Assembly (NCBI RefSeq): GCF_002895945.1
Contig: NZ_NPZB01000001.1
Location: 759,501 to 823,500 of the forward strand
DNA from: Solilutibacter silvestris
GTDB lineage: Bacteria; Pseudomonadota; Gammaproteobacteria; Xanthomonadales; Xanthomonadaceae
Reading direction: 5' to 3'
DNA length: 64,000 bases
Shown: in pieces, positions 25,209-58,388 of the stretch
How positions within the stretch are numbered: the first letter of the stretch is position 1
Layout: the number at the start of each line of letters is the position of its first letter
Program-made: the position numbers and the translations under genes
The notes under the pieces: model-generated
Told to the model about the DNA's origin: nothing
Database searches by the model: none
The model's input: the letters and a program-made list of their open reading frames with translations, nothing else

Positions 25209-25270
25209 CTTTTCTTTCGGCCCATGGTCTGGCTGTCAGGATCATCTGCGGCCGCCGCTACAATGCGCGC

Positions 25271-40542: not shown

Positions 40543-40652
40543 GGAATGCTCCAATGGAGTTCGGCAGGATCGCCGACTGGACACAGGCTAATGCCGCAAC
40601 GATCCGGCGAATAGTTGGCAAAATCTGCCCATATCGTCCTATGATTGGAACG

Positions 40653-41558
40653 ATGCAGGATCTCAACGACCTCTACTACTTCGTCCAGGTGGTCGACCAC
40701 GGCGGGTTCGCGCCGGCGGGGCGGGCGCTGGGAATTCCCAAGTCGAAATTGAGCCGGCGCATCGCGTTGCTGGAGACACGGCTGGGTGTGCGCTTGATAC
40801 AGCGTTCCAGCCGTCGCTTCGTGGTGACCGAGCCCGGACAGACGTATTACGGGCATGCCCGCGCAGCACTGGTGGAAGCGCGGGCGGCGGAGGAGGCGAT
40901 CCAGCGCGATCAGGCGGAACCGCGTGGCGTGGTGCGGATGAGTTGCCCGACCACGCTGCTCGATGTCCAGGTCGGGGCGATGGTGTCCGATTTCCTGCGG
41001 CTGTATCCGCTGGTGGAATTGCATGTCGATGCCACCAATCGCCGCGTCGACGTGATCGGCGAAGGCATCGACATCGCGTTGCGGGTGCGGCCGCCGCCGC
41101 TGGAGGATTCCGATCTGGTGCTGCGGGTGCTGGCGACGCGGTCGCAATGCCTGGTCGCGAGTCCGGTGCTGCTGGCGCGGTTGGGGCAGCCGACATCACC
41201 CGCCGAATTGATGAACTATCCGAGCATGGACCTCGGCCTGCCGCAGAACCTGCACGTGTGGGATCTGCACGGCCCCGATGGCGCGCATATCGCGATTCAT
41301 CACCAGCCGCGTTTCGTCACTCGCGGAATGCTGGCGCTGCGCGATGCCGCGGTCGCCGGCGTCGGCATCGTGCAATTGCCGAAAATGGTGACGCAGGAAC
41401 TGGTGGCGGAAGGGCGCTTGCAGCATGTGCTGGATGGTTGGGCGCCGCGCGAAGACATCGTCCACGCGGTGTTCCCGTCGCGTCGTGGTTTGCTGCCATC
41501 GGTGCGCGCGCTGATCGATTTCCTGGTCGAGCGGTTTGCCGCGCTCGAAGAAAACTAG
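40653..41558 (+). CDS. LysR-type transcriptional regulator
   Basis: 301 residues. The N-terminal winged helix contains FVQVVDHGGFAPAGRALGIP, then KSKLSRRIALLETRLGVRLI. An effector domain follows (RGVVRMSCPTTLLDVQVGAM). It is divergent from pirin, the common arrangement in which an oxidised aromatic or quinone induces pirin. ATG 40653 gives the typical MQDLNDLYYFV start; ATG 40641 is a less likely alternative. Its stop overlaps the convergent MipA/OmpV stop by four bases. Confidence 0.93.
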   Translation: MQDLNDLYYFVQVVDHGGFAPAGRALGIPKSKLSRRIALLETRLGVRLIQRSSRRFVVTEPGQTYYGHARAALVEARAAEEAIQRDQAEPRGVVRMSCPTTLLDVQVGAMVSDFLRLYPLVELHVDATNRRVDVIGEGIDIALRVRPPPLEDSDLVLRVLATRSQCLVASPVLLARLGQPTSPAELMNYPSMDLGLPQNLHVWDLHGPDGAHIAIHHQPRFVTRGMLALRDAAVAGVGIVQLPKMVTQELVAEGRLQHVLDGWAPREDIVHAVFPSRRGLLPSVRALIDFLVERFAALEEN

Positions 41559-42349
41559 AAGTGGTAGACGAAGGCGATCCCTTCGCTGATCTGGTTACGC
41601 TGCCCGAATGACTTCAACAACAGGCTGCTGGCAGGTTCGCCGAGCAGTCGTGAATATTCGATGTTGGCCGCGATGCCGGTGTGCTCGCTGGTCGGCACGA
41701 AAATCTGGTACTGCACGGCGGCTTGCTGCCAGCTTGCGCCGGGACGCCATGGCGTGAGATTCAGCTGCGTCGCCTGTGTCGGATCAAGACCGAAACGTTC
41801 GCGGTTCGATGCCGCGTTGGCGGCGCGCGCCGAGAATTCCAGTCCGTGATCGACATGGGTGAATACCTTCGGCAGCGTCACGTCGGCGTAGAGATCGGCA
41901 TAGGCGCCGCCGCCTCCGAGTTCGTGGATGGCGCGGCCACCAATGGTGAAGGTCTTGTTGAATTCGTGTTCGAGATAGCCGCCGGCGACGAGGCGGTCGT
42001 TGATGCGCTTCACCACCGGTGCCAGCTGCGGACCGAGATCGCTGCGGGTGCGTCCCCAGACGATGTCGGCGTAGAGGCCGCCGTGCCAGTGCTTGCCGCG
42101 CAGCACGTCGACAGTAAGGCCATCGACCGACGACAATTCCGCCTTGCCGGGCAATTCGATGTCGAAGAACGGCAGCGCCTGGGTCCGCTGGTGCTTCGCC
42201 CCGAGCCATGCCGGCAAGCGCTGTGCGCCAGCGCCGATGGCGTAGACAGGTGCTGTCGCTGCGTCTTTCACCGCTTCCTGCGCTTGTACGAGCGAGCCGC
42301 AACCGGCAAATGTGATGGCAAGCAAGCTGTGGTGCAGGATCCGTGGCAT
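41555..42349 (-). CDS. MipA/OmpV family outer-membrane protein
   Basis: A 264-residue protein with a signal peptide (ILHHSLLAITFAGCGSLVQA). Beta-strand-rich stretches include YAIGAGAQRLPAWLGAKHQR, GGLYADIVWGRTRSD, FGLDPTQATQLNLTPWRPGA and the terminal aromatic (FVYHF), as expected of an outer-membrane barrel. The family includes MipA, a scaffold for MltA and PBP1B, and osmoporin OmpV. It is convergent with the LysR gene. Confidence 0.87.
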   Translation of the reverse strand: MPRILHHSLLAITFAGCGSLVQAQEAVKDAATAPVYAIGAGAQRLPAWLGAKHQRTQALPFFDIELPGKAELSSVDGLTVDVLRGKHWHGGLYADIVWGRTRSDLGPQLAPVVKRINDRLVAGGYLEHEFNKTFTIGGRAIHELGGGGAYADLYADVTLPKVFTHVDHGLEFSARAANAASNRERFGLDPTQATQLNLTPWRPGASWQQAAVQYQIFVPTSEHTGIAANIEYSRLLGEPASSLLLKSFGQRNQISEGIAFVYHF

Positions 42350-42494
42350 GAAGGCGATCAATGTGAAGTGGCGGAACAGTCCAAGTGTAGCCGGCGCCAC
42401 GGGAAAACCGCAGCTAAACGCCTGATTTTGGTCTGAAAGGCATGCGAAAGGCGCTTTGTCCAAGCTTTGTGACGTATTTCTGCAAGGTGCGCGT

Positions 42495-43190
42495 GTGAGC
42501 GACTGGACCGTACTGTGTGATTTCGACGGCACCATCAGCGTCGAAGACGTGATTGACTCATTGCTGGTGCGCTTCGGCGAGCCAGGCTGGGAAGTGCTGG
42601 AACGCGACTGGCGGGCAGGCCGCATCGGTTCGCGCGAATGCCTGCAAGGCCAGATCAAGCTGTTGCAGATGCGTCGTGACGAACTCGACGCCCATCTCGG
42701 CGAATTGTGGATCGATCCGGCGTTCCCGGCGTTCCACGCCGTGTTGCACCAACGCGGCATTCCGTTGCGCGTGGTCAGCGATGGCCTCGACTACGCCATC
42801 CACAACATCCTTGCGCGCTTCGGCATGGACGAACTCGATGTCGTCGCCAATGCACTGCAGCCGACCGACGATCCCAAGCACTGGCGCCTGGAGTCACCGT
42901 TCAGCGCCGCAGGTTGCGCCAGCGGCACCTGCAAATGCGCGATCGCGGCGAAGGAGCGCGCGCAGGGCCGCAAGACCTTGCTGATCGGCGATGGCGTCTC
43001 GGATTTCTGCGTCGCCGATCGCGCCGATTTCGTGTTCGCCAAGAACCGCCTGATCGAACATTGCCGCGCCGCCGGTATTCCCTATGTGCCGATCACCAGC
43101 TTTGCCGAGGCGCTGGAATGGCTGCCGAAGCTGCTGCGTGGCGAACTCGAACACAACACCCATTATCTGGAGACCACGTATGTCGATTAA
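42495..43190 (+). CDS. MtnX-like HAD-IB phosphatase
   Basis: A 231-residue phosphatase that opens the biosynthetic operon. The catalytic motif CDFDGTIS gives Asp 9 and 11; the Ser/Thr motif II is in RVVSDGLDY; GDGVSDFCVADRAD is motif III/IV. MtnX dephosphorylates an enol intermediate of methionine salvage, but no other mtn gene is near, so here it probably serves a phosphorylated pathway intermediate. The start is GTG 42495, with AAGG seven bases upstream. It overlaps the aminotransferase gene by 11 bases, so they are translationally coupled. Confidence 0.85.
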   Translation: MSDWTVLCDFDGTISVEDVIDSLLVRFGEPGWEVLERDWRAGRIGSRECLQGQIKLLQMRRDELDAHLGELWIDPAFPAFHAVLHQRGIPLRVVSDGLDYAIHNILARFGMDELDVVANALQPTDDPKHWRLESPFSAAGCASGTCKCAIAAKERAQGRKTLLIGDGVSDFCVADRADFVFAKNRLIEHCRAAGIPYVPITSFAEALEWLPKLLRGELEHNTHYLETTYVD

Positions 43191-44601
43191 TCCCGCCATG
43201 GCATCGGCCGCCCGCCCTGGCGATGGTTACGACGATGCGCAACTGCTCGCCGACGAGGAGTTGTACAGCTCGCATGGCGATACCGTGCATTACGTCGATC
43301 CGCCGAAGATCTTCCACGGTTGCAATGGCAGCTACATGTACGACGGCGCGGGCATCCCCTATCTCGATTTGCAGATGTGGTATTCCGCCTGCAACTTCGG
43401 TTATGCCAATCCGCGCCTCAACGATGCGCTGAAGCGCCAGATCGACACCTTGCCGCAGGTCGCCAGCCAGTACCTGCATCCGACCCGCATCGAACTGGCG
43501 AAGACCATCGCGCAGGACGCCGAAGCCAAGTTCGGCCGCAAGGGTCGCGTGCATTTCAACGTCGGTGGCGCGCAGGCGATCGAGGATTCGCTGAAGATCG
43601 TCCGCAACGCCAGCAACGGCAAAAGCCTGATGTTCGCCTTTGAAGGCGGCTATCACGGTCGTACGCTCGGCGCATCGGCGATCACCTCGAGCTATCGCTA
43701 TCGCCGCCGTTTCGGCCATTTCGGCGAACGCGCGATGTTCATTCCGTTCCCGTATCCGTTCCGCCGGCCGAAGGGCATGACGCCGGAAGAATATTCCGAT
43801 GCCTGCGTGCGCCAGTTCGAGCGGCTGTTCGAAACCGAATACAACGGCGTGTGGGATCCCAAGGTCAGCCAGGCCGAATACGCCGCGTTCTACGTCGAGC
43901 CGATCCAGGGCACCGGCGGTTACGTGATTCCGCCGATGAACTTCTTCAAGGACCTGAAGAAGGTGCTGGACAAGTACGGCATCCTGCTGGTGGTCGACGA
44001 AATCCAGATGGGGTTCTGGCGCACCGGCAAGCTGTGGTCTATCGAACATTTCGGCGTCCAGCCCGACGTGCTGGTCTTCGGCAAGGCGCTGACCAATGGT
44101 CTGAATCCGCTGTCGGGCCTGTGGGCGCGCGAAGAGCTGATCAACCCGACGGTGTTCCCGGCCGGTTCGACGCATTCGACGTTCAACTCCAATCCGCTCG
44201 GCACCGCGCTGGGCCTGGAAGTGATGCGCCTCGGCAAGGACATGGATTACGAACGCACCGTGCCGCTGAAGGGCGCACACTTCCTCGAAGGGCTGCGTGA
44301 CCTGCAGAAGCGTCATCCGGAAATCGGCGACGTCGATGGTCTTGGCCTGGCATTGCGTGCGGAAATCTGCGAAGCCGATGGCTTCACGCCGAACCGCGTA
44401 CTGCTCGACAAGATGGTCGATATCGGCCTGGCCGGCGATTTGCGCCACAACGGCAAGCCGATCGGCCTCGTGCTCGACGTCGGTGGTTGGTACAAGAACG
44501 TGATCACGCTGGCGCCGTCGCTCGACATCACCCATGAGGAAATCGATCTCGCGATCGCGTTGCTCGACCAGTTGCTGACCCGCGCGAAAGCGTCGGCCTG
44601 A
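43180..44601 (+). CDS. Class III (PLP) aminotransferase
   Basis: 473 residues. The PLP lysine is about residue 302 in VFGKALTNGLNP; the cofactor-binding Asp is in LLVVDEIQMGFWRTG; FEGGYHGRTLGASAI binds phosphate. The overall type is omega/diaminobutyrate-like, transferring an amino group to an aldehyde or ketone end rather than an alpha-keto acid. GGAG is seven bases before ATG 43180. It lies directly before an ACP and a ketosynthase, so its substrate may be a carrier-bound or carrier-released carbonyl. Confidence 0.88.
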   Translation: MSINPAMASAARPGDGYDDAQLLADEELYSSHGDTVHYVDPPKIFHGCNGSYMYDGAGIPYLDLQMWYSACNFGYANPRLNDALKRQIDTLPQVASQYLHPTRIELAKTIAQDAEAKFGRKGRVHFNVGGAQAIEDSLKIVRNASNGKSLMFAFEGGYHGRTLGASAITSSYRYRRRFGHFGERAMFIPFPYPFRRPKGMTPEEYSDACVRQFERLFETEYNGVWDPKVSQAEYAAFYVEPIQGTGGYVIPPMNFFKDLKKVLDKYGILLVVDEIQMGFWRTGKLWSIEHFGVQPDVLVFGKALTNGLNPLSGLWAREELINPTVFPAGSTHSTFNSNPLGTALGLEVMRLGKDMDYERTVPLKGAHFLEGLRDLQKRHPEIGDVDGLGLALRAEICEADGFTPNRVLLDKMVDIGLAGDLRHNGKPIGLVLDVGGWYKNVITLAPSLDITHEEIDLAIALLDQLLTRAKASA

Positions 44602-44626
44602 CAGATACCTTCAAGGGAGAGGAACC

Positions 44627-44896
44627 ATGAGCGACACACCGGACGAGAAAGCCATCTTCGACGAGATCGCTTCGCAGATCGCCGCGAAGGCCAAGATCGA
44701 CCTTGCCACCATCCAGCCGCAGTCGACGTTGAAGGACATCGGGGTGAGTTCGCTCGATGCGATCGAGCTGCTGTTCGACATCGAAGAGCACTACGGCATC
44801 ACCTTCCCCGACCAGGGCCCGAACTTCGGCAGCGATACCGTGCAGCAACTGGTCGACGTGGTGCGCGACACGCTCGCGGCGAAAGCAAAGGCCTGA
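44627..44896 (+). CDS. Acyl carrier protein
   Basis: An 89-residue acidic four-helix protein. The phosphopantetheine Ser is residue 42 in KDIGVSSLDAIELLFDIEEH. It is distinct from the housekeeping AcpP (whose DSL motif and fab neighbours are absent here) and belongs to a dedicated pathway. A strong GGGAGAGGAA ribosome site precedes ATG 44627. The ketosynthase follows five bases later, so the pair almost certainly works together. Confidence 0.92.
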   Translation: MSDTPDEKAIFDEIASQIAAKAKIDLATIQPQSTLKDIGVSSLDAIELLFDIEEHYGITFPDQGPNFGSDTVQQLVDVVRDTLAAKAKA

Positions 44897-44901
44897 ATTC
44901 G

Positions 44902-46116
44902 ATGATGAAGCGGCGGGTCGTCGTCACCGGCATGGGCGCGGTGAGTCCCTATGGCGTGGGCGTCGCCCCGCTATGGCAAGGCTTGCGCGCGGGCCGTTCG
45001 GCGATCGCGCCGTTGCGCCATCCCGAGGCGGCGCGGGTGCGGATGAAGGTTGCCGCGCAGTTGCCGGAAGGCATCGATCTCGCGTCGATGCTGAGTGAAT
45101 CGATGTTGCCGCTGCTCGATCGTTGCTCGCAATTCGTGGTGATCGCATCCAATGAAGCCGTGCGCCAGAGCGGACTCGACGTCCGTGCCAACGGCGATCG
45201 CATCGGCGCCATCATCGGCACGGGCATCGGTGGCGTGACCTCGCACGACGAGCAGAGCAAGCGGCTGTATGGCGAGGGTGCCGAGCGCATGCATCCGCTC
45301 ACCATCGTCCGCACCATGGTCAACGCGCCAGCCAGTCACGTCAGCATGGCGCACGGTTTGCGCGGCCCGGTGTTCTCGGTGTCGAGCGCATGCGCATCGG
45401 CCAATCATGCAGTAGCACAGGCGATGGCGGCGATCCGTTCCGGTGCCGCCGACGTGATGCTGACCGGTGGCACCGAAGCCTGCCTCACCTTCGGATTGTT
45501 GAAGGCGTGGGACGCGATGCGCGTGATCGCCGACGACACCTGCCGGCCGTTCAGCGCCAATCGTCGCGGACTGGTGCTGGGCGAAGGCGCGGCGGTGTTC
45601 GTGCTGGAAGAAATGGAACACGCGAAAGCGCGTGGCGCGACCATCCTTGCCGAACTCGCCGGTGCCGGCATGAGCGCCGATGCCGGCGATATCGTCGCGC
45701 CATCGGCGGACGGCGCGGCACTGGCGATCACCCGGGCATTGCAGGATGCGGAATTGCAGGCATCCGACATCGATTACATCAACGCGCACGGCACCGGAAC
45801 GATGGCCAACGATGCCACCGAAACCCGTGCGATCCATCTCGCGCTGGGTGCGCACGCGCAGTCGATCCCGGTGACATCGACCAAGTCGATGCACGGACAT
45901 GCGCTTGGTGCGGCCGGCGCGCTGGAACTCGCGGCGACCATCGCCGCGCTTGATGACCAGTTCGTGCCGCCGACCGCGAATTACGAGCAGGTCGATCCCG
46001 CCTGCGATCTCGACATCGTGCCGAATGTCGGCCGGCCGGCGAAGATCCGCGCGGCGCTGAGCAATTCGTTCGCGTTCGGTGGATTGAATGCGGTGCTGGC
46101 GGTGCGCCAGGCGTGA
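44902..46116 (+). CDS. Beta-ketoacyl-ACP synthase (FabF-like, pathway-specific)
   Basis: A 404-residue condensing enzyme with a complete Cys-His-His site: Cys 164 (SVSSACASANHA), His 296 (NAHGTGTMAND), Lys 328 and His 333 (KSMHGHALGAAG). It is FabB/F-like and so elongates ACP-bound chains, but no malonyl transferase, ketoreductase or dehydratase is encoded nearby; those would be borrowed from primary metabolism. A single-module role, one condensation on the dedicated ACP, is the simplest reading. Confidence 0.9.
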   Translation: MMKRRVVVTGMGAVSPYGVGVAPLWQGLRAGRSAIAPLRHPEAARVRMKVAAQLPEGIDLASMLSESMLPLLDRCSQFVVIASNEAVRQSGLDVRANGDRIGAIIGTGIGGVTSHDEQSKRLYGEGAERMHPLTIVRTMVNAPASHVSMAHGLRGPVFSVSSACASANHAVAQAMAAIRSGAADVMLTGGTEACLTFGLLKAWDAMRVIADDTCRPFSANRRGLVLGEGAAVFVLEEMEHAKARGATILAELAGAGMSADAGDIVAPSADGAALAITRALQDAELQASDIDYINAHGTGTMANDATETRAIHLALGAHAQSIPVTSTKSMHGHALGAAGALELAATIAALDDQFVPPTANYEQVDPACDLDIVPNVGRPAKIRAALSNSFAFGGLNAVLAVRQA

Positions 46117-47183
46117 ACGCCGCAGCCCGCGTGACGGACACGGGCACTCGCTGGATCGCGCAACTCGAACCGGATGCGCTGATCGCTGCATGGCTGGCGC
46201 ATCCACCCAGGGATTTCATCGCCGACACGGTGGCCGGCGCGCCGCGTTTCCTCGCCGCGTTCGACATCCTCACCACGCTGGAACCGCCGCTGTTGCAACG
46301 ATTGCAAGGCTGGCCCGGTTATCGCCTGTGGTCGCGCTGGCTGCGCTGGAAGACGCAGTTCGTCGGCTGCACCTCGAGCGAGTACGCGTTGTTGCCCAAG
46401 GGTGTCGATGCCGATGCATTCGCCGATGCCATCGTGGGCGACGCTGACGCTAGCGCGCGCCTGTTGATCGTCAAGGATCTGGCGCGCCATTCGCCACTGT
46501 TGGATGCCGATGAAAACGCGGCGTGCGAGGCTGCCATCGCCGCGCTGGAAGCGCGAAGCTTCGTGTTGCTGGAAGGCATGCCGCTGGCATGGGTAGCGCT
46601 CGATTTCGCCGATGAAGACGACTACCTCGCGCGATTGTCCTCATCGCGCCGCAAGAACATTCGCCGCAAGTTGCGTTCACGCCAGGACGTGGCGATCGAG
46701 CAGGTCGCCTGCGGGGACCCTCGCTTCGACGACGAGTCGGTGATCGACGAGTACGTGCGCTTGTTCGCCAATGTCCATGCCCAGAGTGATGTCCATTTCG
46801 ACGAATTGACGCGCGGTTATCTCGCCACGCTGCTGCGCCAGGCCGCAGGCGGTGGCATCGTCTTCATCTATCGCCATGATGGTGAAATGATCGGCTGGAA
46901 CCTGTGCTATCCGTGGCGCGGAGCACTGGTCGACAAATACGTTGGCTTCGTTTACCCGCAGGCACGCGAGCACAATCTCTATGCGTTGAGTTGGATGCAC
47001 AATCTGGGGATTGCACGCAGCATGGGACTACAACGCTATATCGCGGGCTGGACCGATGCCGAAGCGAAACGGCAACTCGGCGCGCAGTTCACCATGACCT
47101 GGCACGCCGTGCGGCCGCGCAATCCGCTGCTGCGCATGTTGCTCAGTCGCATGCGTGGGCTGTTCGAAGGTGCACCTGCATGA
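46113..47183 (+). CDS. GNAT/FemAB-like acyl- or aminoacyltransferase (peptidogalycan-synthesis type)
   Basis: A 356-residue protein. The central RRKNIRRKLRS (about 179-189) and, further on, GGGIVFIYRHDGEMIGWNLC and YVGFVYPQAREHNLYALSWM are the pattern of Acetyltransf_6/BioF2-like GNAT proteins related to FemAB. These proteins form amide bonds, for example in cell-wall or amino-acid conjugation. Here it could join an amine to an acyl-ACP product. GTG 46113 overlaps the ketosynthase stop, and its own stop overlaps the arginase-like start. Confidence 0.75.
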   Translation: MNAAARVTDTGTRWIAQLEPDALIAAWLAHPPRDFIADTVAGAPRFLAAFDILTTLEPPLLQRLQGWPGYRLWSRWLRWKTQFVGCTSSEYALLPKGVDADAFADAIVGDADASARLLIVKDLARHSPLLDADENAACEAAIAALEARSFVLLEGMPLAWVALDFADEDDYLARLSSSRRKNIRRKLRSRQDVAIEQVACGDPRFDDESVIDEYVRLFANVHAQSDVHFDELTRGYLATLLRQAAGGGIVFIYRHDGEMIGWNLCYPWRGALVDKYVGFVYPQAREHNLYALSWMHNLGIARSMGLQRYIAGWTDAEAKRQLGAQFTMTWHAVRPRNPLLRMLLSRMRGLFEGAPA

Positions 47184-48037
47184 GCGTGCCGTTGATCCTC
47201 GACCTTGATGACTCCGTGCGCGACATCGGCAGCGCCGACCGCTTGCCGTTGCAGCAGTGGCAGGAACGCCTGCGATTCTCCTGCAGCCGGCGCGACCTGC
47301 GGCGCTTCGGTGCGGCGATTGCGCCGGTGCTGATGGCGGTGCACGGCACGGTGCTGATGGGCAGTGGCGATTTCCATCATCTCAGCCTGCCGCTGGTCGA
47401 ACGCGAGGCGCGGCGCCGACCATTGCGGGTGGTGGTACTCGACAATCACCCCGACAACATGCGTTTTCCGTTCGGGGTGCATTGTGGATCGTGGGTCGGG
47501 CGCGCGGCGAAGTTACCGGGCGTGGTCGACGTGCACGTGCTCGGCATCAGTTCACTCGATGCTGGCCGCGGACATGCCTGGGAAAACCAGCTAGGCGCGC
47601 TGCGCAGCGGTCGCGTGCATTACTGGTGCGTGGGCGTGGATACGGAGTGGGCGCGACGTTTCGGTATTGCGACTGTTCACAGTTTCGAGTCGCCGGAAGA
47701 GTTGGTGGCCGCGTTTGTACGGCAGGTGAAAGATGACGAGATGCCGGTGTATTTCTCGGTCGACAAGGATGTGTTCGCGCCGGACGTGGTGCGGACCAAC
47801 TGGGACCAGGGAAAATTCCAGCTCGATGATGCGCTGACGATCATCGCCGCGTTGAAATCTCGCATTGTCGCCAGCGATATCACCGGCGAGGTGTCGATCC
47901 ATCGATATCGCAGTTTGTTCAAGCGCTTGCTGAGCGCGCTCGATCAGCAGCCAGATCCGTCGCCTGACGAAATCGAGGCGTGGCAGCAACAGCAGGCAGT
48001 GGTGAATCGCGCGTTGATTGCGGCGCTGGGGTGGTGA
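47180..48037 (+). CDS. Arginase/ureohydrolase-fold protein, divergent
   Basis: A 285-residue protein that closes the operon. The two-metal site of the ureohydrolase superfamily is recognisable although the protein is otherwise unusual: GSGDFHH (His 66 or 67 in place of GGDH), LDNHPDN (Asp 88, His 90, Asp 92) and FSVDKDVF (Asp 195, Asp 197). An arginase, agmatinase or formimidoyl-type hydrolase of a guanidino, amidine or amide group is therefore possible; true arginine use cannot be claimed. It is coupled by ATGA to the preceding gene and convergent with the DegT gene. Confidence 0.75.
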   Translation: MSVPLILDLDDSVRDIGSADRLPLQQWQERLRFSCSRRDLRRFGAAIAPVLMAVHGTVLMGSGDFHHLSLPLVEREARRRPLRVVVLDNHPDNMRFPFGVHCGSWVGRAAKLPGVVDVHVLGISSLDAGRGHAWENQLGALRSGRVHYWCVGVDTEWARRFGIATVHSFESPEELVAAFVRQVKDDEMPVYFSVDKDVFAPDVVRTNWDQGKFQLDDALTIIAALKSRIVASDITGEVSIHRYRSLFKRLLSALDQQPDPSPDEIEAWQQQQAVVNRALIAALGW

Positions 48038-48063
48038 TCAAGACCCGCGCCAGCCAGCGCGCG

Positions 48064-49269
48064 CTAGGAAGCCGCGATTGCCTCAATCACGCGGCAAATC
48101 GCCTCGAAATCCTCATCCCGTAGCCACGGACTGTTGCTGATCGTGAAACTGCGCGCAGCGAGATCGCGGGCGTTCGGACAATCCTGCTGCGGCACGATCG
48201 CGCGTAGCTCGGTGTAGTCCGGCAGGGCATGGATGAACATCCGACTTGCGCCGAGACCGGACGTCCACAACTTGTCGAGCACTGCATCACGTCGATGTTC
48301 GCTGTCCATCCGGACCAGCAATGTCGGCCACGTGCCGTGCTCGCCAGCACGATCGCCGAACACCTGCGCGCCGGGAATCGCATGCAGCCGTTCGATCCGC
48401 GCCAACGCACAGGCACAACGCTCCTCCAGGAACCGTGGCAAACGCAACGCCGCGTTCGCACCGATGCGTTTTCGCCATGCCCCCATGCGATGCAACGGCA
48501 CCTGCATCGGGAAACGATCGCCGATCGCGCCAACCGGATCGCCGCGTTTCAATGCGCGACGCAACGGCAGGCCGTAGGCCCAACGCATCCCCAGCGGGCG
48601 ATACAGCGCGGTGTAACCGGCCAGCTCAACACAGCGCTTGCGCTCCATCGCCGCTTGTTCGGGCAATGCATCCTGCAAAGCACGCATCGCCTCCAGCCAC
48701 TGCCGATCACGTGCGACCGCCACGCCGCCCTCGTAGGTCGAGAGGCCCTTGCCGGCGGCGAGGCTGAAGAAGCCGATATCGCCCCGCAATCCGACACTGC
48801 GTCCATTGATGGTCGCGCCGAGCGATTGCGCGGCATCTTCGATCACCACGATGCCGCTGTCGGCTACAACGCGATTGACGGCAGCGACATCGGTGACGCG
48901 CCCGCCCAGATGCGTCGGCACCACCGCGAGGACGCGCTCGTCGAGCTGCGCGCGCAACGCGTATTCATCCATGTCGAGACTGTCGTGGCGGAGGTCGACG
49001 ATACGCAGGCGCAGGCCGATAGCATGTACCGCGATCGCCACCAACGGGCAGGTGTAGGCCGGAACCACCACGACATCGCGCTCGGGCTGTCGCTGTTGCG
49101 CAACACGCAACGCCAGCATCAGCGCGGCGGTGCCGGAGCAGGTGACCAGCGCAGCATCCACGTCGAGTTGCGTGGCCAGCGTAGCGGCGAGATCGCCGTG
49201 CTGCGCGAACAGATCGGAAAACCGCGGCGGCAGGCCGGCGGTCGGCGGGATCTCAGTGAGGCGTCGCAT
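48064..49269 (-). CDS. DegT/DnrJ/EryC1/StrS-type PLP aminotransferase
   Basis: A 401-residue sugar-aminotransferase-family protein. The PLP lysine is 174 in FFSLAAGKGLSTYEGG, the cofactor Asp is 145 in VIEDAAQSLGA, and THLGGRVTD is typical. ArnB, which makes Ara4N, belongs to this family. It is the last gene of a run that also encodes two ArnE/ArnF-like membrane proteins, with overlap of 17 bases. An amino-sugar or similar aminated headgroup is plausible, but the substrate is unknown. Confidence 0.87.
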   Translation of the reverse strand: MRRLTEIPPTAGLPPRFSDLFAQHGDLAATLATQLDVDAALVTCSGTAALMLALRVAQQRQPERDVVVVPAYTCPLVAIAVHAIGLRLRIVDLRHDSLDMDEYALRAQLDERVLAVVPTHLGGRVTDVAAVNRVVADSGIVVIEDAAQSLGATINGRSVGLRGDIGFFSLAAGKGLSTYEGGVAVARDRQWLEAMRALQDALPEQAAMERKRCVELAGYTALYRPLGMRWAYGLPLRRALKRGDPVGAIGDRFPMQVPLHRMGAWRKRIGANAALRLPRFLEERCACALARIERLHAIPGAQVFGDRAGEHGTWPTLLVRMDSEHRRDAVLDKLWTSGLGASRMFIHALPDYTELRAIVPQQDCPNARDLAARSFTISNSPWLRDEDFEAICRVIEAIAAS

Positions 49270-49654
49270 CGGCGTGTTCCGCGGTCTCCCGCGATTCCGA
49301 GATGGCCAGGAGTCCGATGCCGAGCACGATCACCAACGCACCGAACAGCTGCAAGGGGGTGATGCGTTCATGCAGAAACCACGCGGAGACCAGCAGCACG
49401 CTCACCACTTCCAGATGCGAAGCGGCGAACGCGGGGCCGATCGGTGCATCGCGCAGCAGGCGCATCCATGTCACGAACGCGCCGAGATAACCGCACAGCG
49501 CGATCCACGTCCACGGTTGTTCGGCCACGCGCAGGATCCACGCGGCATCGGGTGCGAACGGCAAGGCATGCGTGCCCGCGACCTTGAAGCAGGTTTGCGC
49601 CAGCGTGTCGAACGCCATCAGCACCGGGAATCCGATCGCATACAAGCGCCTCAT
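49253..49654 (-). CDS. EmrE/ArnF-like small membrane protein, subunit 1
   Basis: A 133-residue DMT/EamA-half protein with four membrane helices. AFDTLAQTCFKVAGTHALPF in helix 1 and WFLHERITPLQLFGALVIVL in the last helix match the ArnE/ArnF (Ara4N-lipid flippase) pattern. ATG 49654 overlaps the stop of its partner (ATGA), so the two are made together, as expected for a heterodimer. A polyprenyl-linked or lipid product could be its cargo. Confidence 0.82.
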   Translation of the reverse strand: MRRLYAIGFPVLMAFDTLAQTCFKVAGTHALPFAPDAAWILRVAEQPWTWIALCGYLGAFVTWMRLLRDAPIGPAFAASHLEVVSVLLVSAWFLHERITPLQLFGALVIVLGIGLLAISESRETAEHADATPH

Positions 49655-49995
49655 GCGCCGATCCCCACCAAGGCGACGCCGATGCACACCAGCACGATGC
49701 CGCCGACGCGCAATGGCGTCAGTCGTTCATGGAAGAACAGTCGTCCGCATACCATCAACACGACGATGTTGATCGAGCCGAGCAGCACGCCCAGCGACAA
49801 CGGCACCTGCGACAGGAAGGCGATCCACACCAGGAATTCGCCGAAATAACACAACAGGCCGAGCCACAGGATCGGTTGCCTGGCCAGTGCGCGCCAACCG
49901 TCATCTCCGTGTTTCGCCGCCACCTTGAAGCATAGTTGGCCGCCGGTATCGAGTGCGGCATTGCAGAGCCAGAGGGCGGTGGCCAGTGGCGTCAT
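49651..49995 (-). CDS. EmrE/ArnE-like small membrane protein, subunit 2
   Basis: A 114-residue four-helix protein. Helix 1 has LDTGGQLCFKVAAKHGDD, a clear relative of the partner's DTLAQTCFK; the end has LFFHERLTPLRVGGIVLVCI. In size and pairing it resembles ArnE. ATG 49995 overlaps the hydrolase stop and its own stop overlaps the next start, so a strict four-base coupling chain runs through the operon. Confidence 0.82.
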   Translation of the reverse strand: MTPLATALWLCNAALDTGGQLCFKVAAKHGDDGWRALARQPILWLGLLCYFGEFLVWIAFLSQVPLSLGVLLGSINIVVLMVCGRLFFHERLTPLRVGGIVLVCIGVALVGIGA

Positions 49996-50861
49996 GCGCG
50001 CGGAGTGTCGGCGATGCGGTCGAAGAAGGTGGCGCTGCGATCGATCAGCAAACGATGTTCGCGATCGATCGTGATCATGTGGTAGCTGTTGTCGAGCAGC
50101 AGCAGTTCGGTCGGGCCGGAAACGCTGCGCAACACCACTTCGGCGTTGTCGACGCTGGCGATGTCGTCGTCGCTCGCATGCGCGACCAGGCAGGGTGCGC
50201 TGACCTGTGCCAATTGGCCGCGCACGCGCTTCGCCAGCAGATAGAGTTCCGCCAGCGAGTGCCAGGGATTGCCGGGCAATCCGGCGATGCTGCTGTCGCC
50301 GCTCTGCATCGCGGTGCTGATCTGCGCGCGCAGGCGTTCGTCGCGAATCCCGTAGGGCGGCTGTTCCATGAAGACGCGGTCGCGGCCGATGTTGAAGCGC
50401 TTCAGCAGCGGCAACAATCCCGACAGGCGCGCGATGCGCGGCACGCTCCAGCCGTCATAGCGGAAGGTTGCACCGTAGACGCCGACGCCATCGACGAGAT
50501 CGGGGCGATCGGCGGCAAGGTTGAGCGCGAGCAGCGCGCCCATCGACAAGCCGCCGACGAACAGGCGATCACAATGTTGGCGCAAGCGTTCCGCACCGGT
50601 CTGCACGCTCGCTGCCCAATCCTGCCAGCGCGTTGCCAGCAGGTCGTCCATGTCGCCGCAATGCCCGGCCAACTGCACGCCGTACACGGTGAAGCCGCGA
50701 CGGTTGAGCCCGCGCGCCACCAGCCGCATCTCGTTGGGCGTGCCGGTGAGGCCGTGGGTCAGGAGGACGGCGTTGGGGCCGCCTTCATAGAAGAATTCGG
50801 CCGGCTTCAGTGGAAAAGGTGCTTCGTTCACACCGTCAAGCTTGTCAGCCAGCGGTTTCAT
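49992..50861 (-). CDS. Alpha/beta hydrolase (carboxylesterase-like)
   Basis: A 289-residue protein. VLLTHGLTGTPNEM is the oxyanion-loop motif, VGGLSMGALLAL holds the nucleophile Ser, ASDDDIASV the Asp and DNSYHMITID the His. It is close to Est30/monoacylglycerol-lipase types acting on medium-chain esters or acyl groups. It lies between the sensor kinase (17-base overlap) and the membrane pair. It could release or trim an acylated product. Confidence 0.85.
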   Translation of the reverse strand: MKPLADKLDGVNEAPFPLKPAEFFYEGGPNAVLLTHGLTGTPNEMRLVARGLNRRGFTVYGVQLAGHCGDMDDLLATRWQDWAASVQTGAERLRQHCDRLFVGGLSMGALLALNLAADRPDLVDGVGVYGATFRYDGWSVPRIARLSGLLPLLKRFNIGRDRVFMEQPPYGIRDERLRAQISTAMQSGDSSIAGLPGNPWHSLAELYLLAKRVRGQLAQVSAPCLVAHASDDDIASVDNAEVVLRSVSGPTELLLLDNSYHMITIDREHRLLIDRSATFFDRIADTPRA

Positions 50862-52263
50862 CAGCCTTTCCGGGCGCATCGGCGATCGGCAGCAACAACT
50901 CCACCCGCAATCCGCCGGAGGCGCCGCGGACGTAGCGCACCTGCCCACCGTAACGCGACAGCACCTCCTCGACGATCGCCAGTCCCAGTCCGCTGCCGCG
51001 GGCGTTGCTGCCCGCGACCTGGAAGAAGCGTTCGCCCAGCCGCGCCAGCGTTTCGTCAGGCACGCCGGTGCCATCGTCTTCCACCGCGAGCTCGATGGCA
51101 CCATCGCGCTGCGACAAGCTCACCGTCGTGTTGTGCCCGCGTCCGGCATGGTGCAGGGCGTTGTCGATCAGGTTGTCGAGCGCTTCCTGCAGTGCGGGCA
51201 CGTCGATGGCGGCATGCAACGACTGTTGCGATGGCGCTTCGTAGCCAAGGTCGATGCCGGCACGCAGTGCATCGGGCACGCGTTCGCCGACCAGCAGCGG
51301 CACCACTTCGGCGAGATCGACGCGTTCCGGCAAGCGGGTCTGCACCGATTGCGCGCGCGCCAGGGACAGCAGTTGTTCGGCGATGCGCGAGGTGCGATGG
51401 GTCAGTCGTGAGACATGTCCGAGCGCATCCTCCAGCACTTCCGGGCGCGGATCGTCCAGCGCGCGCTCGGCGTGCAGGCTGAGGCCGGCCAATGGCGTGC
51501 GCAACTGGTGCGCGGCATCGGCGATGAAACGCGACTGCACCGCCAGCGCTTCGCGCAGGTCGGAGACCAGGTTGTCGATGGTGCCGGCCAGCGGCGCGAC
51601 TTCCGAAGGCACGTTGGCATCGAGCAGCGGCTTGCTCAAGGCATCGCCACGGCGCAACCGCGCGATCAGCGGGTCGAGCTGTCGCAAGCCGGTATCGACG
51701 CCGCTGCGCACCACCAGCAGCACGCCCACCACCATCAGCAGCAGGGTGGGAACGGTGATCAGCAGGATCTGTTGCGCCCAGCGCCGGCGATCGGAATATC
51801 CCTCGCCTACGGTGACGGTGACCGTATCGGTCGAATCGACCTTGGGATGGAACGTGCGTGATGCCAGCCGCAGATGATGTTCAGTGCGGATTGACGACAG
51901 TTTCACCGGAGCACCGACCTGCACCGGCAACGATGCCGCTGGCGGCTGGAAATTGGCCGCGATCACGCCCCTGTGCGCGCTGGTGATCGCGTAATACTGG
52001 AAGCCGTCGGGATCGTACTGGATCAGGAACAGCGCCTGTGGCGAAAACGTGCTGAAGGTTTCCGGGCTGTGATCCATCAGCTTCGCGACTGCATCGACCT
52101 GCTCGATCAGCGCGGAATCGTGGGCGCGGTTGGAGTAGTAGCGTGCCATTTCGTAGGTCACCAGCGCGGCGAGGATCGCCAGCACCGTCAACGGCACGCT
52201 GAGATAGAGCAGCAGGCTGCGATAGAGGCTGCGACGACGCGGCGCGCGTTCGTGCTCACTCAT
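50845..52263 (-). CDS. Sensor histidine kinase (TctE/QseC-like)
   Basis: A 472-residue inner-membrane kinase. The first transmembrane segment (about 16-35) is followed by a periplasmic domain of about 130 residues and a second membrane segment (LLITVPTLLLMVVGVLLVV). Then come HAMP, the H-box FIADAAHQLRTPLAG, the N-box LDNLIDNALHHAG and GSGLGLAIVEEV. It overlaps the regulator by eight bases and the hydrolase by 17, so the downstream genes are in the same message. The ligand is unknown. Confidence 0.92.
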   Translation of the reverse strand: MSEHERAPRRRSLYRSLLLYLSVPLTVLAILAALVTYEMARYYSNRAHDSALIEQVDAVAKLMDHSPETFSTFSPQALFLIQYDPDGFQYYAITSAHRGVIAANFQPPAASLPVQVGAPVKLSSIRTEHHLRLASRTFHPKVDSTDTVTVTVGEGYSDRRRWAQQILLITVPTLLLMVVGVLLVVRSGVDTGLRQLDPLIARLRRGDALSKPLLDANVPSEVAPLAGTIDNLVSDLREALAVQSRFIADAAHQLRTPLAGLSLHAERALDDPRPEVLEDALGHVSRLTHRTSRIAEQLLSLARAQSVQTRLPERVDLAEVVPLLVGERVPDALRAGIDLGYEAPSQQSLHAAIDVPALQEALDNLIDNALHHAGRGHNTTVSLSQRDGAIELAVEDDGTGVPDETLARLGERFFQVAGSNARGSGLGLAIVEEVLSRYGGQVRYVRGASGGLRVELLLPIADAPGKADETAG

Positions 52264-52930
52264 TGGCTTCGGGTTCCAGCAGATAGCCGAGGCCGCGCAC
52301 GGTGCGCAGGCGCACGCCACAGTTGTTGATCTTGCGACGCAGGCGATGCAGTGCGATGTCGAGACCGTTGTCGGTCAACTCGTTGTCCCAGGCGCACACG
52401 GTCTCCATCATCTGCACGCGACTGACGATGCGGCCGGCACGCGAGGCCAGCAGCGACAGCAGGGCGAATTCACGCGCGGTGAGTTCGATCGGTCCTTGTG
52501 GCCCGCGTGCACGCTGGTCACCGGCATCGATCACCAAGCCGCCGACTTCCAGTTCGGTCGCGCCCTGCGCCGATCCGCGGCGCAGGTGGGCGCGCACGCG
52601 TGCATCGAATTCGGCGATCGCGAATGGCTTCACCAGGTAATCGTCGGCACCGAGGTCGAGGATGCGTACGCGTTCGTTCAACGCTTCGCCCGCGCTCACC
52701 ACCAGGATCGGCGTATCGATCTTCGCTGCGCGCAACCTGCGGATCACCTCGCCGCCTTCCAGCGAGGGCAGGCCGATGTCGACGATCAGCAGCTGGTAGA
52801 CGCCGGTCTTGCCGGCCTGCTCGGCCAGCTTGCCATCAGCCACCCAATCGACGGCATGGCCGCGCGCCACCAGCAAGGTCTGCATGCCGGAGGCGATGTG
52901 GTCGTCGTCTTCCGCGATCAGGATGCGCAT
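52256..52930 (-). CDS. OmpR/PhoB-family response regulator (TctD/QseB-like)
   Basis: 224 residues. The receiver domain has the acidic pocket EDDD (8-11), the phosphorylated Asp in LLIVDIGLPSLEGG and the conserved VKPF lysine. The C-terminal winged helix has LTAREFALLSLLASRAGRIV and IALHRLRRKINNCGVRLRTV. It lies four bases downstream of the outer-membrane protein gene and is coupled to the kinase. It probably autoregulates this operon. Confidence 0.94.
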   Translation of the reverse strand: MRILIAEDDDHIASGMQTLLVARGHAVDWVADGKLAEQAGKTGVYQLLIVDIGLPSLEGGEVIRRLRAAKIDTPILVVSAGEALNERVRILDLGADDYLVKPFAIAEFDARVRAHLRRGSAQGATELEVGGLVIDAGDQRARGPQGPIELTAREFALLSLLASRAGRIVSRVQMMETVCAWDNELTDNGLDIALHRLRRKINNCGVRLRTVRGLGYLLEPEANE

Positions 52931-52934
52931 GCCG

Positions 52935-53699
52935 CTACTTTAATACTTGTACGCCGAGATAGAACACCGGGCTGGAACGCGGGCGATCCCCCGAGACCTG
53001 CCGTCCCAGCGAAGCCATGAACAGCAGGTGTTCGTTGATCGGGTGGCGAACGCCGAGGTTGGCGATGGTCTGCGTCGATGCGTGATCGGTCCGCGTGGTG
53101 TTGATTTCTGCGAGGCATTGCCATTGCAGCGGGCAGGGGCGCGCCCAGAACAGCCCGGCCTGCCAGGCATCGCTGTCCTTCTCGACGAAATGCCGTGCCA
53201 GCTCGACGCCCATGGTCGACTTGCCGAAGGTCTTGACGATCTGCAGCGGCAGCACGAATTCCTGCGTCGCCGGACTCAGGTCCTTGTGCTGCGCCGCGGG
53301 CGGTCCCGGCAGCACCCAATGCGGTTGCACCGCCATCGCCACACCGGCCTTGTCCTCGTCGAGGAAGCGCCAGCGCGCGGCGAGTTCGACCGGGCCGAGG
53401 CCGGATGCCATCGGCATGCGTTGTTCGCTGCGATGTTCCCAGCCGAGATGGATCGACAACTGGATACGTTCGCCCAGACCGTAGTTGATGTCGGCATCGG
53501 GTGCCGAGACATTCCATGCATGTCCCGTGCGATCACCGGTCGCGGCGAGGTTGATCTCCCAATGGCCAGCGCCTGGCGTGCCGGTATCGTTGGTGATCAT
53601 CGGCGGCCCGGCCTGCGCCAGCGCGATCCCTGGAATGCAGGCGCAGGCGACCAGCAGGAGCGCGAGCCATCTCCAGCCGCGGCGAAGCGACATCCTCAT
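52935..53699 (-). CDS. Outer-membrane beta-barrel/transporter-like protein
   Basis: 254 residues with a signal peptide (WLALLLVACACIPGIALAQA). TNDTGTPGAGHWEINLAATG, YGLGERIQLSIHLGWEHRSE and NLGVRHPINEHLLFMASLGR are typical of MetA-pathway/phenol-degradation-type outer-membrane proteins of unknown substrate. ATG 53699 overlaps the upstream stop by one base; ATG 53693 is also possible. It is in the same tight unit as the two-component system, so it may deliver or sense the signal. Confidence 0.7.
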   Translation of the reverse strand: MRMSLRRGWRWLALLLVACACIPGIALAQAGPPMITNDTGTPGAGHWEINLAATGDRTGHAWNVSAPDADINYGLGERIQLSIHLGWEHRSEQRMPMASGLGPVELAARWRFLDEDKAGVAMAVQPHWVLPGPPAAQHKDLSPATQEFVLPLQIVKTFGKSTMGVELARHFVEKDSDAWQAGLFWARPCPLQWQCLAEINTTRTDHASTQTIANLGVRHPINEHLLFMASLGRQVSGDRPRSSPVFYLGVQVLK

Positions 53700-54511
53700 C
53701 AATGTGCTTTGGTCGCGGCCCGTTGCGGGAAGATCAGGATGCACAGCACGATCGCAGCGAGCAGCGCCAGCGATCCACTGTAGCGGCTGAGTTCCAGGCC
53801 ACCCTTGGCATGCGGCTTGTCCATGAAATCGCCGACGACGGCGCCGAGTGGACGCGTCAGCACGAACGCCGACCAGAACAACGCGGTGCGCGAAATCTTG
53901 GTGGTGAAATACAGGAACGCGACGAGCAGCAGCAGGCCGCCAAAGATCGCCATGCCGCCGGTGTAGCCAAGCCCCTGCGTATCCGCCACCCAATCACCGA
54001 GCGCGGTGCCCAATGTTTGCGAGAAGGTGATGGTGAGCCAGTAGAACAGTTCCGAGCGGGTGTCGCGCACGCTGTCGACGGCGATCGTGCCGGTGCTGCG
54101 ATACCAGGTGAACAACGTCGCCAGCAGCAGCGCGAGCAACAGTGTCGAACCACCGGTGTAACCGATGCCGAGCGAGCGATCGGCGAAATCCGCCAGGGTG
54201 GTGCCGACCGTGGTGCTGGCGACGATGGCGAACCAGTACAGCCAGCGATTGAAACGCGGCGTGCGGATTTGCAACGCCACTGCCGCCGCGAAGACCGCCG
54301 CGAAGATACCGGTCCCGATCAGATAGCCAGGATGCCAGGCCGTGGCGCTGGCATTCGGGGTGGTTTCGCCCAGCCACGACATGGTGACCGCGTCGCCGCC
54401 AATTTCGCCGAGCGTGGTCGCGAGGATCTTGATGATCCAGAAGCCGAGGGTGATGGCGGGGACCTTGGCGATCCAGTCGGTCAGGGTGTCCTTGCGGTTG
54501 GCGTCGATCAT
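53699..54511 (-). CDS. COG4705-type multi-pass membrane protein
   Basis: A 270-residue protein with seven or so helices. Four GDWVAD/ADFADRS-like turns repeat: GGDAVTMSWLG, GTTLADFADRSLGIGYTGGS, GTALGDWVADTQGLGYTGGM and LGAVVGDFMDKPHAKGG. Internal repeats with Asp in the membrane suggest ion or substrate transport. The function is unknown to me. It is the first gene of the eight-gene minus-strand run that ends at the DegT gene. Confidence 0.75.
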   Translation of the reverse strand: MIDANRKDTLTDWIAKVPAITLGFWIIKILATTLGEIGGDAVTMSWLGETTPNASATAWHPGYLIGTGIFAAVFAAAVALQIRTPRFNRWLYWFAIVASTTVGTTLADFADRSLGIGYTGGSTLLLALLLATLFTWYRSTGTIAVDSVRDTRSELFYWLTITFSQTLGTALGDWVADTQGLGYTGGMAIFGGLLLLVAFLYFTTKISRTALFWSAFVLTRPLGAVVGDFMDKPHAKGGLELSRYSGSLALLAAIVLCILIFPQRAATKAH

Positions 54512-58034: not shown

Positions 58035-58206
58035 GGCGTCGCTCTCATCGAACGCACGGGCGCATGGCCATCCCGCGTGGCCAGGCGACGAGAGGAATCG
58101 ACGGAAGATGGGCCACGAATGGCGCGCCATCTTTCGCGGCGACGCCCCCTCGGGCGGCGGATTGCTCCGCATGCCGACACCGCACGAGCGTGCATGACGC
58201 GCGGCT

Positions 58207-58387
58207 GTCGGCAGGTCTTCGGACTTACGGGCACGAAGCGCGGGCGCTTCTCCTAACCGTCGCTTCCCGGATCGCTCCAGTGCATGTGACGGGTTCGTTC
58301 CCGATTACCGCTGCGGGGCAGTGCCGGAGTTGGCCCGAAGGCCGCACCGACTTCCCTTTTCATCCGACGCCATCGCCGGAACCGACG
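58207..58387 (-). promoter_or_regulatory. Cobalamin (AdoCbl) riboswitch in the nrdA leader
   Basis: On the reverse strand the conserved elements occur in order. GTCGG pairs with the final CCGAC (P1). GATGAAAAGGGAAGTCGGTG is the invariant AAGGGAA region. CACTGCCCCGCAGCGGTAA follows, then the L5 region with CACTGG and GGGAAG, and finally GTAAGTCCGAAGACCTGCC. This matches the B12-element layout of the E. coli btuB leader. The predicted transcript start falls at its 5' edge. The remaining 172-base stretch to nrdA (58035-58206) is GC-rich and presumably the expression platform; I see no clear U-tract terminator there, so ribosome-site control is likelier. Confidence 0.92.
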
Positions 58388-58388
58388 A

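What the first reader, a model, noticed from the sequence alone, without database searches (positions are those of the whole stretch)
42495..48037. Uncharacterised six-gene ACP/ketosynthase operon with a class III aminotransferase, FemAB-like transferase and arginase-fold enzyme
Six tightly coupled genes (HAD phosphatase, class III aminotransferase, acyl carrier protein, ketosynthase, GNAT/FemAB-like transferase, arginase-fold protein) form one transcription unit. All active-site motifs are intact. There is only one ketosynthase and no reductase or malonyl transferase, so it is not a classical polyketide or fatty-acid cluster. A likely reading is that one condensation product is released, aminated and joined to another group by amide formation, with a phosphorylated precursor processed by the HAD enzyme. 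I do not recognise this gene set as a described pathway. The product is inference.
Basis: partly seen in the sequence, partly recalled or inferred. Interest (0 to 1): 0.82.

Follow-up and report, generated by a model that had tools for sequence, protein, structure and literature searches.

The report
Uncharacterised proteobacterial biosynthesis-and-export gene cluster
The six genes are real but are part of a larger gene set, found on chromosomes and plasmids of many Proteobacteria, that probably builds and ships out a small amine-bearing, perhaps lipid-like, molecule that seems undescribed; the two fatty-acid-type genes are optional extras.

Summary
The six genes are present as described, overlapping or within 25 bp of each other, with intact catalytic residues. 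The boundaries are wrong. Among 63 full-flank relatives (found with ARG), GNAT occurs in 63, an EamA pair in 59, DegT aminotransferase and alpha/beta hydrolase in 58, HAD and class III aminotransferase (AT) in 57, but the ACP/ketosynthase pair in 39, mostly on the other strand. The unit in the window thus runs about 41.5-52.9 kb on both strands. The core also occurs in other proteobacterial families and on Rhizobium, Agrobacterium, Bartonella and Roseomonas plasmids: of 72,556 plasmids, 34 of 34 with the AT and 47 of 47 with the GNAT also hold ARG. An exporter and two-component genes often accompany it; two of nine annotated plasmid loci add a fatty-acid desaturase, one also a cyclopropane synthase. 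Best reading: AT+HAD make a small amino head group, the FemAB-fold enzyme acylates or aminoacylates it, EamA pair and (where present) pump move it out. Product and chemistry are inferred. Seven open-access text searches aimed at this gene set found no description.

The parts
41555..42349 (-). MipA/OmpV family outer-membrane protein, divergent neighbour; possible accessory
   Evidence: Pfam MipA 7.9e-19; homologue in 24 of 63 full-flank loci; MipA/OmpV in two of nine annotated plasmid loci
42495..43190 (+). MtnX-like HAD-IB phosphatase
   Evidence: TIGR01489 91.4 bits, cut-off 81.55; in 57 of 63 loci
43180..44601 (+). class III PLP aminotransferase-fold enzyme (AT)
   Evidence: Pfam 8.8e-71; 57 of 63 loci, median 87% identity; 34 plasmid records at 69-81%
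44627..44896 (+). acyl carrier protein (optional part)
   Evidence: Pfam PP-binding 1.1e-9; 39 of 63 loci; Ser42 55 of 55
44902..46116 (+). FabF-type ketosynthase (optional part, paralogue of the housekeeping type)
   Evidence: PRK07314 430 bits, cut-off 387; closest other match in the same genome 42%; 39 of 63 loci, within 120 bp of ACP in 39 of 39
46113..47183 (+). FemAB-like tandem-GNAT transferase
   Evidence: PF13480, PF04339; model pLDDT 87.6; best Foldseek matches aminoacyl-tRNA-dependent peptide synthases, MprF, FemX
47180..48037 (+). arginase-fold metallohydrolase (ARG)
   Evidence: PF00491 4.8e-8; model pLDDT 83.5 matches agmatinase, proclavaminate amidino hydrolase, guanidinopropionase; ligand motifs in 97 of 97
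48064..49269 (-). DegT/DnrJ/EryC1-type PLP aminotransferase
   Evidence: Pfam 2.3e-44; 58 of 63 loci; 50% identical partner beside an EamA pair in Roseomonas
49253..49654 (-). small EamA-family membrane protein 1
   Evidence: Pfam EamA 2.4e-10; 59 of 63 loci; frame checked
49651..49995 (-). small EamA-family membrane protein 2
   Evidence: Pfam EamA 1.8e-9; 59 of 63 loci; frame checked
49992..50861 (-). alpha/beta hydrolase (start codon chosen by me)
   Evidence: Pfam Hydrolase_4 4.8e-20; 58 of 63 loci; near HAD and AT also in distant genomes without ARG
50845..52263 (-). sensor histidine kinase (start codon chosen by me)
   Evidence: Pfam 2CSK_N, HisKA, HATPase_c; kinase match in 44 of 63 loci at E<=1e-10, orthology not tested
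52256..52930 (-). OmpR-type response regulator
   Evidence: Pfam; at 429 bits or more in 5 of 17 genomes of the genus, all 5 among the 6 that carry ARG

Best explanation
A conserved, horizontally moving locus that makes, flips and exports a small amine-bearing and probably acylated (aminolipid-like) molecule. Proposed order: the class III PLP enzyme puts an amino group on (or moves it within) a small, probably phosphorylated precursor and the HAD phosphatase removes the phosphate, giving an amino head group (a possible case is DHAP to serinol phosphate to serinol). The FemAB-fold transferase forms an amide on that amine, taking an acyl or aminoacyl group from an ACP, CoA or tRNA. Where present, the dedicated ACP and FabF-type ketosynthase supply a special acyl chain; elsewhere the housekeeping pool does. 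ARG and the alpha/beta hydrolase trim or deprotect. The EamA pair works as a flippase with the DegT aminotransferase, and a TolC/HlyD/ABC pump, in genomes that have one, exports the product under two-component control. Shown: gene set, co-occurrence, predicted folds, catalytic residues. Inferred: every chemical step, the lipid nature and the direction of transport.
For: Co-occurrence: of 63 loci found with ARG, GNAT in 63, HAD and AT in 57, DegT and hydrolase in 58, EamA pair in 59; all 16 strong ARG genomes of 398 are among the 25 with the AT (hypergeometric 1.5e-22, kinship not corrected for); plasmids: 34 of 34 AT and 47 of 47 GNAT records also hold ARG. Acyl link: KS and ACP always together (39 of 39); KS also sits beside HAD-AT-hydrolase in three genomes of a distant family, ACP detected in one of them (L158, L161, L164); two of nine annotated plasmid loci add a fatty-acid desaturase, one of these a cyclopropane-fatty-acid synthase. 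Export link: pump permease in 30, HlyD in 31, TolC in 29 of 63 loci; homologous pump beside the Agrobacterium locus (permease 45%, ATPase 57.5%). Amide link: fold of the transferase. Head-group link: HAD within 2 kb of the AT in 7 of 8 AT-positive, ARG-negative genomes read; DHAP-to-serinol precedent in passages of PMC3222319.
Against: No product, substrate or expression data. KS/ACP not found in 24 of 63 loci and 8 of 9 annotated plasmid loci; pump permease not found in 33 of 63 loci, nor in the window's own genome (which had no positive control). Lipid-tailoring genes are in only 2 of 9 annotated plasmid loci. The best Foldseek neighbours of the transferase are tRNA-dependent aminoacyl transferases, not acyl-ACP N-acyltransferases. 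ARG has no clear place in an N-acyl amino alcohol pathway. The Bartonella locus shows no HAD or hydrolase in the stretch read.
Confidence: 0.45

Rival explanations
1. Cationic envelope modification: the FemAB/MprF-fold protein aminoacylates a membrane or lipid-carrier-linked substrate, the DegT aminotransferase and ArnE/F-like EamA pair handle an amino sugar, and the two-component genes and MipA respond to envelope stress. KS/ACP only adjust the anchor.
For: Best folds are streptothricin-type peptide synthases, MprF, A-PGS, L-PGS and FemX; DegT and EamA pair sit together also in Roseomonas (50, 51, 60% identity); undecaprenyl-diphosphate phosphatase beside both Roseomonas loci read; MipA near 24 of 63 loci.
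Against: No glycosyltransferase, lipid A or PG synthesis gene among the families identified in the conserved set; a TolC-type pump suggests a secreted rather than anchored product; HAD+AT+ARG are not part of any such system known to me.
Confidence: 0.22
2. Secreted soluble small molecule (antimicrobial or signal) built from an amino acid: ARG acts as an amidino- or formimino-hydrolase, the transferase joins building blocks with aminoacyl-tRNA, and the pump exports and protects.
For: ARG fold closest to agmatinase, proclavaminate amidino hydrolase and guanidinopropionase; fold tie to streptothricin peptide synthases and a clavulanic-acid tandem GNAT; plasmid carriage and patchy presence, 6 of 17 genomes of the genus.
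Against: ARG shares only weak sequence similarity with ureohydrolases (agmatinase model 20.4 bits against cut-off 302); desaturase and cyclopropane synthase in rhizobial loci point to acyl chains.
Confidence: 0.2
3. One reading: the six plus-strand genes alone form the pathway, with the ketosynthase condensation product as its core.
For: Tight coupling of the six genes in the window and the same order in near relatives such as L026, L027, L029, L030.
Against: KS/ACP not found in 24 of 63 relatives that keep the rest, and on the other strand in 27 of 39.
Confidence: 0.06
4. Catabolic locus for an acylated or guanidinylated amine: hydrolases, phosphatase and transaminase break down an imported compound.
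For: Two hydrolases and a PLP enzyme in one set.
Against: The constant FemAB-fold transferase, a dedicated KS/ACP and an efflux-type pump are anabolic in character; I saw no recurring importer among the neighbour clusters (not searched for specially).
Confidence: 0.07

Closest known systems
FabF (beta-ketoacyl-ACP synthase II) with ACP, as in dedicated acyl-chain suppliers such as rhizobial AcpXL/FabF (recalled)
   Same: KS passes the PRK07314 cut-off and keeps Cys, His, Lys, His; ACP keeps its serine
   Different: no reductase, dehydratase or malonyl transferase among the genes identified beside it; the pair is optional in the locus
Serinol formation by RtxA (rhizobitoxine pathway)
   Same: amination of DHAP and removal of phosphate (passages of PMC3222319); here a separate AT and HAD are paired
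   Different: substrate here unknown; RtxA was not compared by sequence; no sulfhydrylase in the conserved set
FemX / MprF / streptothricin aminoacyl-tRNA-dependent transferases
   Same: tandem-GNAT fold, Foldseek E 1.6e-11 to about 1e-9
   Different: 11-19% identity; donor unknown; no MprF membrane domain
Ureohydrolases (agmatinase, proclavaminate amidino hydrolase, guanidinopropionase)
   Same: fold and metal-ligand motifs
   Different: far below family cut-offs; a subfamily of its own with GDFHH and LDNHPDN motifs
ArnE/ArnF flippase pair with ArnB-type DegT aminotransferase (recalled)
   Same: two small EamA proteins next to a DegT aminotransferase
   Different: DegT far below the sugar-aminotransferase cut-offs listed; no other arn-type gene seen
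DevBCA-TolC type exporters (recalled)
   Same: HlyD adaptor, ABC ATPase, permease, TolC near the core in 29-36 of 63 loci, by gene
   Different: cargo unknown; permease not found in the window genome

Membership tests
Classical type II polyketide or fatty-acid synthase cluster | KS with partner KS/CLF, reductase, malonyl transferase in the same set | tested here: not met
   one KS and none of the partners among the window genes 40554-54511 scanned or the recurring neighbours identified
FabF / KAS II | score above a curated cut-off and Cys-His-Lys-His | tested here: met
   PRK07314 430 vs 387, though TIGR03150 435.5 vs 493.75 is not reached; residues 57 of 57
Arginase/ureohydrolase superfamily | arginase fold with binuclear metal-ligand motifs | tested here: met
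   (fold is a prediction)
Named ureohydrolase (agmatinase, arginase) | score above the curated cut-off | tested here: not met
   agmatinase models 20.4 vs 302 and 16.2 vs 174.3 bits
GABA/ornithine-type class III transaminase | carboxylate-binding Arg in the C-terminal motif (role recalled) | tested here: not met
   Thr443 in 91 of 91; Arg in 4 of the 4 shown PDB relatives that align there, a fifth ends before it; control: Arg in 4 of 15 class III paralogues, Thr in none, so other transaminase types are not excluded
FemAB/MprF-type aminoacyl-tRNA transferase | tandem-GNAT fold | tested here: met
   (fold is a prediction)
FemAB/MprF-type aminoacyl-tRNA transferase | uses aminoacyl-tRNA as donor | not testable with these tools
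   needs biochemistry
Exosortase A (PEP-CTERM) associated cluster | exosortase-associated hydrolase and FemAB equivalogs | tested here: not met
   hydr2_PEP 26.1 vs 202.75 bits; GNAT hits no NCBIfam model at E<=0.01
Cispentacin biosynthesis (AmcB, AmcF) | equivalog scores for ACP and KS | tested here: not met
   17.4 vs 80 and 217.3 vs 325 bits
Serinol pathway (RtxA-like) | DHAP as amino acceptor | not testable with these tools
   in vitro assay needed

The most novel reading that the evidence does not exclude
A previously undescribed class of exported proteobacterial aminolipid (for example with an N-acylated serinol-like head group), made by a mobile pathway in which the PLP enzyme can be swapped for a glutamate-semialdehyde-aminomutase-family enzyme (Roseomonas, Aureimonas) and the acyl chain is customised by clip-on genes: ACP+KS in Xanthomonadales, desaturase and cyclopropane synthase in rhizobia.
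Probability: 0.3. Interest if true: 0.8.

Novelty: new variant of a known kind. Interest (0 to 1): 0.62.

Why it matters
One gene set recurs on chromosomes and plasmids of plant, soil, skin and bat-associated Proteobacteria; on plasmids the marker genes co-occur in 34 of 34 and 47 of 47 records. Its product is therefore probably useful at the cell surface or outside in many niches. It gives a concrete target for deletion and heterologous expression, and its swappable parts (two kinds of PLP enzyme, optional KS/ACP, desaturase, cyclopropane synthase) make the chemistry testable gene by gene. If the product is a lipid it may correspond to unidentified aminolipids reported in taxonomic descriptions of such genera (recalled, not checked).

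Tried and rejected
Rejected: six-gene pathway centred on KS/ACP. Rejected: the AT's Thr443 as proof of a non-transaminase; it looked striking (91 of 91; Arg in 4 of 4 PDB relatives aligned there) but Arg is absent from 11 of 15 other class III paralogues too (16 stretches were fetched, one gave no match and was dropped). Rejected by score: cispentacin, exosortase-A, agmatinase, MtnX proper (PRK09552 97.9 vs 292 bits). Led nowhere: paper searches aimed at the set (five empty, one unrelated paper each, listing only); ceramide synthase, empty; 200 papers held the terms, the 8 listed were unrelated, listing only. led to PMC3222319, of which only matched passages were read. Pump permease in own genome: no match (no positive control). 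Empty-site test: the two genus members without ARG that I fetched keep a LysR relative, one with its left neighbour, but no gene of the block in 20 kb, so the ends of the insertion were not defined. ARG and GNAT against PDB sequences: best E 0.13 and 0.17. My first KS check looked at His331, which is not the catalytic residue (56 of 57); His333 was checked afterwards (57 of 57). Selection: the 63 loci were found with ARG, so ARG in 63 is by construction; they are the 63 of 80 kept loci with at least 18,800 bases (17 left out), and the 80 are the best of 173 matches. Absences are absences from the stretch read: one search found the AT in 7 of 7 carrier genomes, including L100, whose stretch lacks it. 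In some searches and 109 rows below identity or coverage limits are left out.
Full report
What is in the window. Six plus-strand genes lie at 42495-48037 with junctions between an 11-bp overlap and a 25-bp gap. Families: MtnX-like HAD-IB phosphatase, class III PLP enzyme (AT), acyl carrier protein, FabF-type ketosynthase (KS), FemAB-like GNAT, arginase-fold protein (ARG). Catalytic residues are intact and conserved. The closest other KS in the same genome is 42% identical, so this KS is a separate paralogue. The host is a 2.85-Mb genome; its nearest named matches are Lysobacter/Lysobacterales assemblies.

The unit is larger. A scan with ARG gave 173 confirmed relatives, of which the best 80 were kept. 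In the 63 of these 80 with full flanks (ARG in all by construction) GNAT occurs in 63, directly upstream of ARG in 57; the two small EamA proteins in 59, DegT aminotransferase and alpha/beta hydrolase in 58, HAD and AT in 57, KS+ACP in 39, a kinase match in 44, a regulator match in 34 at E<=1e-10 (39 at E<=1e-3), HlyD in 31, ABC ATPase in 36, permease in 30, TolC in 29, MipA in 24. KS and ACP are adjacent in 39 of 39, on the GNAT strand in 12 and opposite in 27. In the S. maltophilia-group, X. vasicola, X. prunicola and Delftia loci the pair was not found in the stretch while AT, GNAT, ARG and HAD were; S. nitritireducens, S. mori and the X. sacchari plasmid do have it. In the window the minus-strand genes from 48064 to 52930 are the DegT, EamA pair, hydrolase, kinase and regulator. 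In the window's genus 6 of 17 genomes carry ARG; the regulator occurs at 429 bits or more in 5 of 17, all among those 6 (chance about 0.001).

Breadth. In 398 genomes of the phylum an ARG profile hits 18, 16 of them strongly (E<=1e-35); the AT at E<=1e-120 hits 25, including all 16. Two genomes of one such family (G452, G486; 'Pseudomonas-like' is my inference from size and grouping) carry ARG, EamA pair, HAD, AT (73-74%), hydrolase and GNAT within about 7 kb; a third (G380) has GNAT-ARG-EamA pair on one contig and HAD-AT-hydrolase-GNAT on another. Nine genomes have the AT but no ARG match; I read eight: HAD and hydrolase lie near the AT in seven, KS in three, a GNAT match in two, pump and EamA pair in one, and nothing recognisable in one (G178, AT 55%).

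Plasmids. Among 72,556 plasmid records the AT (E<=1e-100) is in 34, GNAT (E<=1e-5) in 47, ARG (E<=1e-5) in 49. By accession, 34 of 34 AT and 47 of 47 GNAT records are in the ARG list, and in the 34 the AT and ARG start within 4 kb of each other. The two extra ARG records are Lachnospira eligens at 26% identity. The 13 GNAT records without the AT are 11 Roseomonas, one Azospirillum and one Aureimonas. Ten regions were fetched, nine of them annotated. All nine have a class III PLP enzyme, GNAT and ARG (some called hypothetical); eight of nine have HAD, hydrolase and at least one EamA (not Bartonella). KS/ACP is in one (X. sacchari), pump genes in three (cut by the stretch in X. sacchari), a fatty-acid desaturase in two, a cyclopropane synthase in one, undecaprenyl-diphosphate phosphatase in two, regulator plus kinase-like genes in seven. 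In Roseomonas mucosa HV2 and Aureimonas AU20 the PLP enzyme is 24% identical to the AT and passes a subfamily cut-off of glutamate-1-semialdehyde aminomutase, not the hemL equivalog cut-off: a non-orthologous swap. These bacteria make the haem precursor by the other route (recalled), so a haem role is unlikely.

Folds. The GNAT model (pLDDT 87.6) is closest to aminoacyl-tRNA-dependent peptide synthases of streptothricin type, MprF and FemX. The ARG model (pLDDT 83.5) is closest to agmatinase, proclavaminate amidino hydrolase and guanidinopropionase, with the ligand motifs in 97 of 97 rows, yet far below the curated agmatinase cut-offs.

A residue that tempted me. The AT has Thr where GABA-transaminase and the racemase relatives have a C-terminal Arg (91 of 91 against 4 of 4). 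A control on 15 other class III paralogues from carriers shows Arg in only 4 and Thr in none. So the AT is probably not of the GABA/ornithine type, but this does not show that it is not a transaminase.

How it may work. The most economical reading joins AT+HAD (amino head group, with a DHAP-to-serinol precedent read in passages of PMC3222319), FemAB-fold amide formation, optional dedicated acyl supply, trimming by two hydrolases, an EamA pair as flippase and a TolC-type pump. The rhizobial desaturase and cyclopropane synthase, and the recurrent KS/ACP in several arrangements, are why I favour an acylated product. Against this, lipid genes are in the minority of loci, the pump was not found in the window's genome (no positive control), and the transferase's nearest folds use aminoacyl-tRNA. 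A cationic envelope modification or a soluble secreted compound remain serious rivals.

Novelty. Seven searches of an open-access full-text library with combinations of the family and organism names found no description of the set; three further searches asked related questions. Subscription papers, preprints and MIBiG were not searchable. All parts belong to known enzyme families; the combination and its plasmid-borne spread appear undescribed.

Noticed in passing
58193-58401 (-): Cobalamin riboswitch, 116.6 bits, just upstream of the minus-strand ORF 55626-58172.
   Followed up: no
25029-25209 (+): 6S RNA (SsrS), 88.4 bits.
   Followed up: no
53699-54511 (-): DUF347 repeat membrane protein, kept beside the cluster in the near loci L026 and L030.
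   Followed up: no
L172 7324-15060 and L175 5321-13054 (Roseomonas plasmids): Roseomonas plasmids, one from human skin, carry the set with another class III PLP enzyme in place of the AT (GSA-aminomutase family in L172; L175's was not scanned) and an undecaprenyl-diphosphate phosphatase beside it.
   Followed up: partly
L169 8986-14989 (Bartonella sp. HY406 plasmid): Bat Bartonella plasmid: AT (80% to the window), GNAT and ARG without HAD or hydrolase in the stretch, next to an MBOAT O-acyltransferase related to DltB (below its cut-off).
   Followed up: partly
L128 5199-10566: Same-family genome with KS-ACP-EamA-GNAT-hydrolase-EamA-ARG in one run but no HAD or AT match within the 20 kb fetched; diverged GNAT and ARG.
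   Followed up: partly
L123 15524-18824; L172 15092-18281; L175 14634-16275; L176 13743-16933: Outside Xanthomonadales the set is often followed by a kinase (AtoS-like in L123) and a sigma-54-type regulator rather than an OmpR-type pair.
   Followed up: partly
window 42495-50861 against L026 and L030: AT, ACP, KS and alpha/beta hydrolase stay at 90-95% identity while GNAT, ARG and DegT drop to 76-81%, suggesting different constraints inside one pathway.
   Followed up: no
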